Positions 31,422 through 34,932 of a DNA stretch of 39,599 nt are shown here, one piece after another. The stretch's first letter is position 1, and the number at the start of each line of letters is the position of its first letter. Position numbers and translations under genes: made by a program. The DNA lies in the NCBI GenBank assembly GCA_020724775.1, contig DYGG01000004.1:1-39599 (forward strand), in the 5' to 3' direction. Source of the DNA: Ignavibacterium sp. Its GTDB lineage: Bacteria; Zixibacteria; MSB-5A5; GN15; PGXB01. The notes below the pieces were generated by a model. It worked only from the letters and a program-made list of their open reading frames with translations, searched no databases and was not told the origin of the DNA.

Positions 31422-32189
31422 TTATCTCTTTTTTCTTGGCTGTCTCGGCTTCCGAGGTTTAATAGCGGCAGAATTCACCTGTACCAATTTCTCCCAATTT
31501 ACGACACCGTCAATGCAATATTCATTGGTGAATTCATGAGTGAAATTAGTGAATATCTTTGCGTAGGCGGCCTGGAAGGCATCGTTTTTCTCTTTTGCTT
31601 TGTGGCCGAGAGGTTCAATGATTTGGACGTAGAGGTCATTATTCCCGGATATAAATTCCCAGAATTTTTGACCACATAACTTGATATACTCTTCTTTCTG
31701 AGGTTGGGGGCATCTTCCATAGCAACATCCATTGACTGCTACTATATTCTGCTTCGACATGTTGGACCTTAAGATGGATTTCGCCTTTCTGAAGTTCTCT
31801 TTCATTTTTCTTATTTGGCTGGCGTTCCCCCAGTTTGGGCCGGACTTGATTGAAACAATGTACCTAATGTCGTCCCTCTCGAATTCAAGGTCAATACCCT
31901 CGGCGGATGATTTCCTGCCGCCATATACCCGACCATTGATGAAGATTGCCAAACCCTCGAGGAATCTACCGAAGATTGTCTCTTCTTGAGACGACAGGAA
32001 TGCATCTAATAGGGTCTTTACTAGCTCAGGGGCGCTCAATAAATGCTTCGCTCTAAAAAGATACGGATTCTTTCTACATATAATTTTTTCCAATTTGAGA
32101 GATTCAAGGCTCTTACGACGATTACCGTGAAATGAGTCGATATTTCTCTCTACATATTCCGTTACATCCCCCAGACTAATAGGATTCAT
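31422..32189 (-). CDS. PmeII-family-like type II restriction endonuclease
   Basis: 255 aa from the ATG at 32189 (a TTG at 32192 is adjacent). The pattern NIDSFHGNRRKSLESLKLEK, LLDAFLSSQEETIFG, then EGIDLEFERDD, YIVSIKSGPNWGN and VAVNGCCYG matches type II REases I associate with the PmeII family. A PD-(D/E)XK-like core can be placed on D101, S114 and K116. The start lies 4 bp beyond the stop of the TSPPY methyltransferase, so the two are translationally coupled and probably a restriction-modification pair. Composition is AT-richer than the flanking genome. Recognition sequence unknown. Confidence 0.75.
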   Translation of the reverse strand: MNPISLGDVTEYVERNIDSFHGNRRKSLESLKLEKIICRKNPYLFRAKHLLSAPELVKTLLDAFLSSQEETIFGRFLEGLAIFINGRVYGGRKSSAEGIDLEFERDDIRYIVSIKSGPNWGNASQIRKMKENFRKAKSILRSNMSKQNIVAVNGCCYGRCPQPQKEEYIKLCGQKFWEFISGNNDLYVQIIEPLGHKAKEKNDAFQAAYAKIFTNFTHEFTNEYCIDGVVNWEKLVQVNSAAIKPRKPRQPRKKR

Positions 32190-32193
32190 CAAA

Positions 32194-33051
32194 TCAACCG
32201 ACTTTCAAGAGGTCCATAACCAAAGGACTTACTTTATTTTTTACAATCTCACAATATTCGGGAAGAATTTCTATTCCGACAGAATTTCTTCTGAGTTTCT
32301 GTGCGACGACAAGAGTTGTCCCTGAGCCCATAAAAGGATCTAAGACTAAGTCGCCCTCCTTCGTGAATAGCCGAATGAACCACTCAGGCAATTTCTCCGG
32401 AAAGACAGCACTATGGTCCTTATTGCTGCATTCCGTAGCCATATGCAGCACGTTCGGCGGATAGGCTTTTTCCCTGTTGAGCCAGTGAGATATATTCTTT
32501 CCGAACCCACTGCCATTCCTGGCGTTGTCACGTCTCTTATCAGTTTGGCTAAGATTTTTCAAACGGTCTTGCGCCCAATCACCAATAGGGACCATTACGG
32601 CATCCTGATACATGTGGAATTTCTTTGTCTTATTAAACTGCAGTAATCTCTCCCAGGCATCTCTAAATCTATTAGGCCATTTGCCTGGATAGCAGTTCTT
32701 TTTGTGCCAAATGAATTCTTCCGTCCAGAGCCAACCTTGTTTCCGCATTTCGAGGATTAGTTGTAGAACATAGGTATGGCGTTCGCCATTAACGACGCGC
32801 TCCTTGATATTAAGTATGAATGTGCCTGTCGGCTTCAGCACGCGCAATAGTTCTTTTGTTGTCGGCAGGAACCACTCGACATATTTATTAGGATTGACGC
32901 CCCCATAAGTTTTCATCCGTCTATCCGCATAGGGGGGGGAAGTGATGATCAAGTCAACGGAATTTGATGCCATTTTAGGCAGTTCATTTCTGCAATCACC
33001 GCAGATGACGTTCGCAAGAATCTCCATGTGTCTGTTTTTCTGGATATTCAT
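32194..33051 (-). CDS. Beta-class DNA methyltransferase (TSPPY; likely N4-cytosine or N6-adenine)
   Basis: About 285 aa from the ATG at 33051 (AAGGA 8 bp upstream); an ATG at 33069 is possible. In the numbering from 33069, catalytic motif IV TSPPY (43-47) precedes the AdoMet motif DPFMGSGTT (244-252). That order defines beta-class amino-methyltransferases. TSPPY is commonest in N4-cytosine enzymes but also occurs in N6-adenine ones. It protects host DNA against the coupled endonuclease downstream. It follows the HaeIII-like gene by about 100 bp that contains a REP-like palindrome. Confidence 0.88.
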   Translation of the reverse strand: MNIQKNRHMEILANVICGDCRNELPKMASNSVDLIITSPPYADRRMKTYGGVNPNKYVEWFLPTTKELLRVLKPTGTFILNIKERVVNGERHTYVLQLILEMRKQGWLWTEEFIWHKKNCYPGKWPNRFRDAWERLLQFNKTKKFHMYQDAVMVPIGDWAQDRLKNLSQTDKRRDNARNGSGFGKNISHWLNREKAYPPNVLHMATECSNKDHSAVFPEKLPEWFIRLFTKEGDLVLDPFMGSGTTLVVAQKLRRNSVGIEILPEYCEIVKNKVSPLVMDLLKVG

Positions 33052-33080
33052 TGTAATTTTCCTTGTCATAACTTATCTAC

Positions 33081-33106
33081 TCGAAACCGCAAGGGTTTCG
33101 ACCTAC
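33081..33106 (-). repeat. REP-like palindrome, divergent copy D
   Basis: TCGAAACC (33081-33088), 5-bp loop, GGTTTCGA (33094-33101), then CCTAC. On the minus strand GTAGG precedes the palindrome, as in copies A-C. It lies between the two restriction-modification pairs. Confidence 0.6.
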
Positions 33107-33149
33107 GAAACTATAATTCTATTTTTTGCAGATAGCAATTTCTCAAGTC

Positions 33150-34055
33150 CTAGCGAAAACTATAATTCATTTCATTTCTCGAGAGCATGCTGGGCACACC
33201 TACAAGATTAATGTCAAACTTGAGCGAAGGTTCCACTAATGTACTAGCGCTATGAATCCTGAATGACACTTGCCAACCATTGTCCAGCGTCATAATGAGT
33301 GTGGTAGTCGATCGTGGCTTTCTTGTTATTTCAATTATCCTAGTTGGAAGTGGAATACGATTGCCCCACCTAAGGCTCCCCATGATGTTGAACGAAGAAA
33401 CACTTACAACTCCATTCTCTTTAATGATCTTGTAAAAATCAGATGTTCCAAGAAGATAGTGTATCAGTCGTCCTGCTCTTATCTCGCTCTCAGTAGCAAG
33501 GAGGCGGCGAATTTCCCGATCAAATGCAAGCAGTATTGGCGAATAATATCGAGCTCTCTTATCCGATATATGACGCCAAAGCTCTCCATTCCGTTGTCGA
33601 TCCCTTAATTCTTGGAATAATGGACGAATCTCATTCATATATTCGCTTGAACATGGCTCTTGGAGCCAATCATGGCCAAAGTCTATACTGTCAGAGAGCC
33701 TTGAGTGTTTTAATGCATGATGACGATGCTTGGCAGAAATGCCTACAAGGTCATTTGTGACTATATTGGTGACAATAATATCTCTCACATCGCCTGACAT
33801 TCCGACCCGGTCTGTCTGAATCCTAATTGAACATTGACATTGAACTAGGGTGTTGTCACGTTCAATTAAGAATTCTCCGGCGACCCGGGCCGCTTCAGAT
33901 ATATTTTGTTGCTCATTTAGACTACGCCCTTCAAAGCATAACCTCGCCCTTTCCACGGCACCGTTTTGTTCAATTGGTGACTGCAATTGGACGCTGAGGG
34001 CTGCCGCTAATCCGTATTCAAATGCCCTCCCCGATTCATTCTGTGAAGCAGGCAT
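33150..34055 (-). CDS. HaeIII-family type II restriction endonuclease
   Basis: 301 aa. It resembles HaeIII along most of its length: SGRAFEYGLAAAL at the start, IQTDRVGMSGDVRDIIV, GISAKHRHHALKHSRLSDSI followed by DFGHDW, CSSEYMNEIRPLFQEL, a YLLGTSDFYK segment, and the C-terminal WQVSFRIHSASTLVEPSLKF. HaeIII cuts GGCC. Ribosome site AAAGGTG before the ATG, 4 bp after the stop of the D12 methyltransferase, so the two are coupled. HaeIII itself is paired with a 5-methylcytosine enzyme; none is present here. Confidence 0.82.
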   Translation of the reverse strand: MPASQNESGRAFEYGLAAALSVQLQSPIEQNGAVERARLCFEGRSLNEQQNISEAARVAGEFLIERDNTLVQCQCSIRIQTDRVGMSGDVRDIIVTNIVTNDLVGISAKHRHHALKHSRLSDSIDFGHDWLQEPCSSEYMNEIRPLFQELRDRQRNGELWRHISDKRARYYSPILLAFDREIRRLLATESEIRAGRLIHYLLGTSDFYKIIKENGVVSVSSFNIMGSLRWGNRIPLPTRIIEITRKPRSTTTLIMTLDNGWQVSFRIHSASTLVEPSLKFDINLVGVPSMLSRNEMNYSFR

Positions 34056-34059
34056 AGAT

Positions 34060-34932
34060 CTACACCTTTAAATCGCTACTCAAGATCAAGATTTCGCGAG
34101 ACCGTTTTTCCTTTGACATGCCGTAAATCCAAGCAAGCGAGACTATATTATGCTTCCTGTACATATGTCTAATCTTCTCACAATCATTGTAAGATAATAT
34201 CCAGCGTCCGCGCTCATTCAGCATTTCGGCAAGTGCAGTATGATCGAAACCTGTGTGAGTGTCACCCTTGACCCCATATAGGGCTTGTCCATTCATGTAT
34301 GGCGGATCAAGATAAAGGAATGCAGTCTTGTGCTTTGGTATGACTTCCCGGAAATCAGCACACTCTACCTGCAAGTTTTCAATCTTAATACTGCTTAGTC
34401 TCGCTATCGCTGAATGCGTGAATCTCGGATGACCTGGCGACATTCCCCCTGACAGCGTGGTGCCCGAGAATGACGACCTATTCAGCACAAAAAAGGCCGC
34501 CGCGCGTTCTACTTGATCATCCAGTTCAAGATAAGTTTTTTGAAGTTCATAAAATCGCCTCCGGGACAATGGCAAGTAACTTTTGACCCTTTGCACAAGT
34601 TTTGTCTGCTTACCTAATAGGACCTCCCAGAAGTCAATGAGCGGTCGGAAAATATCTGAACCATAGACCTTCATCCTTGTCGTACACGCCAACTCTATTG
34701 ACCCACCGCCCAAAAACGGAGAACAAAGCACTTTTTCATTATGCGGTATTCGGGCAAAAATTGCTCTAACTGCCCTGTTTTTTCCCCCTGGATATCTTAA
34801 AGGAGACCTTGGATAATCTCTCGGAAGTCCTCCCAAAAGGTCTATTGTCTCTCTGCTGCTTGAAAAATATCTCTTCTGTGCAACTCCAGAATTCTCTATC
34901 TCAGCCGCCTTCTGCAGATTACTTGAACTCAT
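34060..34932 (-). CDS. D12-class (Dam-like) N6-adenine DNA methyltransferase
   Basis: 290 aa. Motif X-like LRYPGGK (45-51), AdoMet motif SPFLGGGSIE (71-80), catalytic motif DPPY (209-212), in the alpha-class order. The closing segment SYNDCEKIRHMYRKHN is typical of the MethyltransfD12 family. It should methylate adenine N6 in a short sequence. First gene of the island, reading into the HaeIII-like endonuclease. AGGGGGTGGGGA precedes the ATG. AT-richer than the surrounding genome. Confidence 0.88.
   Translation of the reverse strand: MSSSNLQKAAEIENSGVAQKRYFSSSRETIDLLGGLPRDYPRSPLRYPGGKNRAVRAIFARIPHNEKVLCSPFLGGGSIELACTTRMKVYGSDIFRPLIDFWEVLLGKQTKLVQRVKSYLPLSRRRFYELQKTYLELDDQVERAAAFFVLNRSSFSGTTLSGGMSPGHPRFTHSAIARLSSIKIENLQVECADFREVIPKHKTAFLYLDPPYMNGQALYGVKGDTHTGFDHTALAEMLNERGRWILSYNDCEKIRHMYRKHNIVSLAWIYGMSKEKRSREILILSSDLKV

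What the first reader, a model, noticed from the sequence alone, without database searches (positions are those of the whole stretch)
33150..34932. HaeIII-like endonuclease coupled to an adenine methyltransferase
HaeIII recognises GGCC, which contains no adenine, and its known partner makes 5-methylcytosine. Here the coupled enzyme is a D12 N6-adenine MTase, and no m5C enzyme is in the window. GGCC is common in the window, so if the site is still GGCC something must protect it. Either the endonuclease has changed specificity to a site with A, or the TSPPY enzyme (possibly N4-cytosine) protects across pairs, or an m5C MTase lies elsewhere.
Basis: partly seen in the sequence, partly recalled or inferred. 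Interest (0 to 1): 0.65.

Follow-up and report, generated by a model that had tools for sequence, protein, structure and literature searches.

The report
CbeI-type GGCC restriction-modification pair
A bacterial DNA-cutting enzyme of the HaeIII type sits next to a DNA methyltransferase whose database name says 'adenine' but whose closest characterised relative methylates cytosine in GGCC, so this is most likely an ordinary self-protecting restriction system and not a puzzle.

Summary
The genes are real. A HaeIII-family endonuclease (33150-34055, -) lies 4 nt downstream of a D12-class methyltransferase (34060-34932, -). No m5C methyltransferase is in the window or anywhere in the 95.7%-complete genome. 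The best solved relative of the D12 protein is M.CbeI (PDB 7m6b), an alpha-class, DPPY-bearing N4-cytosine methyltransferase of GGCC. M.CbeI was annotated as D12 adenine-specific and is the partner of the HaeIII isoschizomer CbeI. The window D12 falls in a fully supported clade of D12 enzymes, nearly all HaeIII-paired, in at least six phyla; that clade is related to the M.CbeI clade, and Dam enzymes fall outside. The REase clade sits among HaeIII relatives coupled to M.HaeIII-type m5C enzymes. One REase (L023) is 57% identical to m5C-coupled REases yet carries a window-type D12, in a genome with no detected m5C enzyme. The TSPPY enzyme belongs to a second pair, with a PmeII/EcoO109I-family REase. 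Most likely this is a CbeI-type GGCC system protected by N4-methylcytosine: a new, divergent member of a known kind. Base and site are inferred, not measured.

The parts
34060..34932 (-). D12 (alpha-class) DNA methyltransferase, M.CbeI-like; predicted GGCC N4-cytosine MTase
   Evidence: PF02086 E 2.3e-31; best PDB sequence hit M.CbeI 7m6b E 1.9e-33, against Dam about 1e-6 and DpnM 1e-8; tree; Foldseek rank 1 is 7m6b
34297..34308 (-). catalytic motif IV DPPY (residues 209-212 of the D12 protein), equivalent to M.CbeI D179-Y182
   Evidence: alignment; sequence
34702..34716 (-). AdoMet-binding motif FLGGG (residues 73-77)
   Evidence: alignment
33150..34055 (-). HaeIII-family (PF09556) restriction endonuclease, predicted to cut GGCC
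   Evidence: PF09556 E 6.7e-73; PADLOC REase_II E 1.9e-76; AF2 pLDDT 94.8
33729..33782 (-). conserved D92-x14-S107-x-K109 stretch, invariant in 33 relatives; candidate catalytic hairpin (inference)
   Evidence: alignment A4 invariant columns; strands 93-97 and 103-110 in the model
32194..33069 (-). TSPPY (PF01555) MTase of a second, separate R-M pair
   Evidence: best PDB hit M.PvuII m4C MTase; 66% identical to the MTase coupled to a PmeII-family REase on an Aeromonas plasmid
31422..32192 (-). PmeII/EcoO109I-family (PF14511) REase, partner of the TSPPY MTase
   Evidence: PF14511 E 1.3e-87; 51% identical to the Aeromonas PmeII-family REase

Best explanation
This is a type II restriction-modification system of the CbeI/M.CbeI kind. 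The endonuclease is a HaeIII-family enzyme that cuts unmethylated GGCC. The D12 protein is an alpha-class MTase that, despite its DPPY motif and 'adenine' label, methylates a cytosine of GGCC at N4 and so blocks self-cleavage. Shown here: both genes intact and coupled, family membership, the relation to M.CbeI, recurrence of the pair across phyla, no m5C enzyme in the genome. Inferred: the GGCC site, the m4C chemistry, and activity in this organism.
For: (1) Published precedent: M.CbeI was annotated D12 adenine-specific, carries DPPY, and protects GGCC from CbeI, a HaeIII isoschizomer; dideoxy sequencing traces point to m4C (PMC3425538). The genes are adjacent, and genomic DNA that still makes M.CbeI resists HaeIII (PMC3679861). 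(2) M.CbeI (PDB 7m6b, named in PMC8616854) is the best PDB hit of the window D12 (E 1.9e-33) and Foldseek rank 1 of its model. (3) D12 tree: the window is in a 16-row clade (100/100), 15 of them HaeIII-paired; it joins the M.CbeI/Nostoc clade in a group of 25 (95/94) that also holds one cyanophage enzyme, and excludes Dam-type D12s. (4) In 80 genome loci the REases nearest the window (L012-L026) all have a D12 directly upstream; nearly all the rest have an m5C gene. The pair recurs on four cyanobacterial plasmids. (5) The REase clade lies among m5C-coupled HaeIII relatives, and the m5C partners of two that were tested are M.HaeIII-like (E 6e-123 and 1e-63). (6) L023: the REase is 57% identical to m5C-coupled REases and at most 46% to D12-coupled ones, yet its partner is a window-type D12 and its genome has no detected PF00145. 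(7) No PF00145 in this genome, nor in 5 of the 15 other genomes with the D12-coupled REase.
Against: Identity of the window D12 to M.CbeI is only 33% over 249 residues, and I found no window-type D12 with a measured methylation product. Sequence alone does not separate m4C from m6A in alpha-class enzymes. The group uniting the two D12 clades also holds a long-branch cyanophage enzyme of unknown specificity. Foldseek puts Dam close behind M.CbeI. An orphan copy (Bartonella L092) has no annotated REase in the stretches read. GGCC depletion does not single out this system.
Confidence: 0.87

Rival explanations
1. The D12 protein is a true N6-adenine MTase and the endonuclease has shifted to a site that contains A.
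For: DPPY motif and Dam-family profile similarity (TIGR00571, 92.7 bits). The D12-coupled REase clade is distinct from the m5C-coupled ones. AGCT, which contains A, is strongly depleted in this genome (O/E 0.18) but not in the same-genus genome (0.75).
Against: M.CbeI has the same DPPY motif yet is reported as m4C. The TIGR00571 score is below its curated cut-off of 114.85. AGCT is not depleted in seven other genomes that carry the D12-coupled REase (0.81-1.03). L023 pairs the same D12 type with a REase embedded in the M.HaeIII-coupled group.
Confidence: 0.07
2. The endonuclease still cuts GGCC but is protected by another enzyme: the neighbouring TSPPY MTase or an m5C MTase elsewhere; the D12 gene is a bystander.
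For: TSPPY enzymes include m4C MTases, and the best PDB hit is M.PvuII. The genome carries many other PF01555 MTases. The assembly is 95.7% complete, so a gene could be missing.
Against: The TSPPY gene is coupled to a PmeII/EcoO109I-family REase here and on Aeromonas and Acinetobacter plasmids. No PF00145 is found in the genome. The D12 gene directly precedes the REase in all 15 nearest relatives.
Confidence: 0.04
3. The system is a decayed or inactive island remnant.
For: The four-gene block has lower GC (0.436 against 0.51) and no GATC avoidance (11 observed, 12.0 expected, against 24 of 183 outside), as expected of foreign DNA.
Against: All four ORFs are full length; motifs and invariant residues are intact; the REase model is of high confidence.
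Confidence: 0.02

Closest known systems
CbeI / M.CbeI of Caldicellulosiruptor bescii (PMC3425538, PMC3679861; PDB 7m6b)
   Same: HaeIII-like REase coupled to a D12-annotated alpha-class MTase with DPPY; GGCC
   Different: The window MTase is only 33% identical to M.CbeI and lies in its own supported clade; gene spacing is 4 nt here and 45 bases in C. bescii. The CbeI sequence itself was not available to compare.
Nostoc/Aulosira plasmid HaeIII-family + D12 pairs (L007-L010)
   Same: Same two families, directly coupled, no m5C gene in the pair
   Different: REase is first in the operon; REase 25% and MTase 35-37% identical to the window's; the MTase is of M.CbeI type (about 55% to M.CbeI)
HaeIII / M.HaeIII and relatives (L027-L091)
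   Same: Same REase family, about 38-44% identical to the window REase
   Different: Partner is an M.HaeIII-type m5C MTase, unrelated to D12
M.Ssp6803II of Synechocystis (PMC6560206)
   Same: Makes GGm4CC, which blocks HaeIII
   Different: Its sequence was not compared here
E. coli Dam / DpnM (m6A, GATC)
   Same: Same D12 fold and DPPY motif
   Different: Much weaker sequence similarity (E about 1e-6 to 1e-8 against 1.9e-33 for M.CbeI); Dam-type enzymes fall outside the clade

Membership tests
HaeIII-family REase (PF09556) | profile match above the curated cut-off over the full model | tested here: met
   245.9 bits against 25; 1-298 of 298
HaeIII-family REase (PF09556) | family-invariant residues present (D92, S107, K109, H112, H117, R119, K209, R266, H268, K279, D281) | tested here: met
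   A1 and A4 invariant columns
HaeIII-family REase (PF09556) | cleavage of GG^CC | not testable with these tools
   needs the purified enzyme
M.CbeI-type alpha-class m4C MTase | D12 domain with FxGG and DPPY | tested here: met
   residues 73-77 and 209-212
M.CbeI-type alpha-class m4C MTase | groups with M.CbeI to the exclusion of Dam-type D12 enzymes | tested here: met
   95/94 branch, 25 rows, including one cyanophage enzyme; M.CbeI best PDB hit
M.CbeI-type alpha-class m4C MTase | coupled to a HaeIII-family REase | tested here: met
M.CbeI-type alpha-class m4C MTase | N4-methylation of cytosine in GGCC | not testable with these tools
   needs methylome or enzyme assay
Dam family m6A MTase (TIGR00571) | score above the curated cut-off | tested here: not met
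   92.7 against 114.85 bits
M.HaeIII-type m5C partner (PF00145) | a PF00145 MTase in the system or genome | tested here: not met
   0 matches in 3.07 Mb, 95.7% complete; control rings in 10 of 14 genomes

The most novel reading that the evidence does not exclude
The window-type D12 clade makes m6A and its HaeIII-family endonucleases have moved to an adenine-containing site, which would be the first specificity change in the HaeIII family known to me.
Probability: 0.07. Interest if true: 0.55.

Novelty: new member of a known kind. Interest (0 to 1): 0.25.

Why it matters
It removes an apparent contradiction caused by an automatic gene name and shows that the CbeI type of system is widespread (at least six phyla plus cyanobacterial plasmids). 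It also shows that HaeIII-family endonucleases have been coupled, more than once on the tree, to two unrelated protective chemistries (m5C by an M.HaeIII-type enzyme, and a D12 enzyme probably making m4C). Genome annotation that calls such D12 genes 'adenine methylase' will predict the wrong methylome and the wrong protection for transformation.

Tried and rejected
Viral-contig scan with the REase: no relatives. Phages: one weak match. REase against PDB by sequence and by fold: no relative, so no template for base contacts. Site statistics: GGCC depletion is genus-wide and AGCT depletion is private to this genome and not shared by other carriers, so neither identifies the site. AGCT as the site of the TSPPY/PmeII pair: not depleted on an Aeromonas plasmid that carries that pair (21 observed, 25.6 expected). 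The 2011 paper on CbeI is not held. An AU test on 81 rows did not finish; the 40-row test gave p 0.028 against a single D12-coupled REase clade, with the group named after seeing the tree.

Full report
What is there. On the minus strand, in transcription order, lie a D12-class MTase (34932-34060), a HaeIII-family REase (34055-33150), a TSPPY MTase (33069-32194) and a PF14511 REase (32192-31422). Each MTase directly precedes a REase (gaps of 4 nt and 1 nt). The second pair is a known combination: Aeromonas and other plasmids carry a site-specific MTase (66% identical on the one compared) with a PmeII-family REase (51%). So the TSPPY enzyme is accounted for, and the D12 protein is left as the partner of the HaeIII-family enzyme. 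The block has lower GC (0.436 against 0.51) and lacks the GATC avoidance of its surroundings, as expected of an acquired defence island.

Is another protector present? The whole genome (3.07 Mb, 95.7% complete) has no PF00145 m5C MTase, while the same search finds one in 10 of 14 control genomes. It has a single PF02086 gene, this one.

What the D12 protein is. In the PDB its nearest relative by sequence is 7m6b (E 1.9e-33; next DpnM 1e-8, Dam about 1e-6). 7m6b is M.CbeI, the alpha-class N4-cytosine MTase of Caldicellulosiruptor bescii (PMC8616854). Chung et al. (PMC3425538) report that M.CbeI was annotated as a D12 adenine enzyme, carries DPPY, protects DNA from CbeI (a HaeIII isoschizomer, GG/CC), and leaves a sequencing-trace signature of m4C. 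They also cite DmtB of Anabaena as a GGCC m4C enzyme 57% identical to it. PMC3679861 adds that the two genes are adjacent and that DNA from a cbeI deletion strain still resists HaeIII. In a tree of 33 D12 proteins the window protein lies in a clade of 16 (100/100); 15 are HaeIII-paired and one is a Bartonella plasmid copy without an annotated REase in the stretches read. This clade and the M.CbeI/Nostoc clade (97/99) form one group (95/94), together with a long-branch cyanophage enzyme; Dam-type and other D12 enzymes fall outside. The AF2 model (pLDDT 79.5) has M.CbeI as Foldseek rank 1, ahead of Dam by a small margin.

What the REase is. It matches PF09556 over its full length and carries the family-invariant residues. 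A scan of 84,980 species genomes gave 444 relatives, of which the best 80 were kept. The 15 nearest (L012-L026) have a D12 MTase immediately upstream; nearly all others have an m5C MTase. The m5C partners of two were tested and are M.HaeIII-like along their whole length (E 6e-123 and 1e-63), so those REases very probably cut GGCC. In the 87-row tree the D12 label needs three changes: Nostoc-type, window-type, and L023. L023 is the telling case: its REase is 57% identical to m5C-coupled ones and at most 46% to D12-coupled ones, it sits at the base of a mainly Bacteroidota m5C-coupled group (98/92), its D12 is of the window type, and its genome has no detected PF00145. An exchange of that kind is viable only if the D12 enzyme protects the same site (inference). 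The AU test against one D12-coupled clade gives p 0.028, with the group named after the tree was seen.

Site statistics. They do not decide. GGCC is depleted here (0.39) but equally in a same-genus genome without the REase (0.35). AGCT is depleted only here (0.18 against 0.75) and not in seven other genomes carrying the D12-coupled REase (0.81-1.03).

How it most likely works. The D12 enzyme methylates GGCC at N4 of a cytosine; the HaeIII-family enzyme cuts unmethylated incoming DNA. Shown: genes, families, phylogeny, recurrence and absence of m5C enzymes. Inferred: site, base, and activity in this organism. I put 0.87 on this reading, 0.07 on a shifted adenine-containing site, 0.04 on another protector and 0.02 on an inactive remnant.

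Novelty. The type of system has been published since 2011-2012. The window belongs to a divergent clade (33% identity to M.CbeI) for which I found no biochemical data, so it is a new member of a known kind. What may interest specialists is the repeated coupling of one endonuclease family to two unrelated methylation chemistries.

Noticed in passing
whole genome sample (L111-L122) and window: AGCT is depleted about five-fold in all flanking contexts (O/E 0.18), against 0.75 in the same-genus genome G077. This suggests a long-resident AGCT-specific restriction system elsewhere in this genome, which carries many PF01555 MTases (19 matches).
   Followed up: partly
window 31422-34932 against the rest: GATC is strongly avoided in the genome and in G077 (0.17 and 0.12) but not inside the four-gene block (11 observed, 12.0 expected), marking it as recently acquired.
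   Followed up: partly
window 33150-34055, model mc789cb72585b: The HaeIII-family REase gives a very confident AF2 model (pLDDT 94.8), yet neither sequence nor Foldseek finds any solved relative (best E 0.033, TM 0.13). This widely used enzyme family appears to have no solved structure; a D-x14-S-x-K stretch may be a variant PD-(D/E)XK hairpin.
   Followed up: partly
L007-L010 (Nostoc/Aulosira plasmids): GGCC is almost absent around the HaeIII-family + D12 pair on these plasmids (O/E 0.04 over about 30 kb).
   Followed up: no
L095, L096 and other cyanophage records: Cyanophages carry M.CbeI-like D12 MTases (Microcystis phage Mic1 is 59% identical to M.CbeI) with no REase, possibly to evade host GGCC restriction.
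   Followed up: no
L092 (Bartonella harrusi plasmid pBHa): A window-type D12 MTase (about 50% identical) without an annotated REase next to it in the stretches read.
   Followed up: partly
window 31422-33069: The second pair couples an EcoO109I/PmeII-family REase to a TSPPY (probably m4C) MTase; EcoO109I itself, from memory, has an m5C partner, so this may be a second case of partner exchange.
   Followed up: partly
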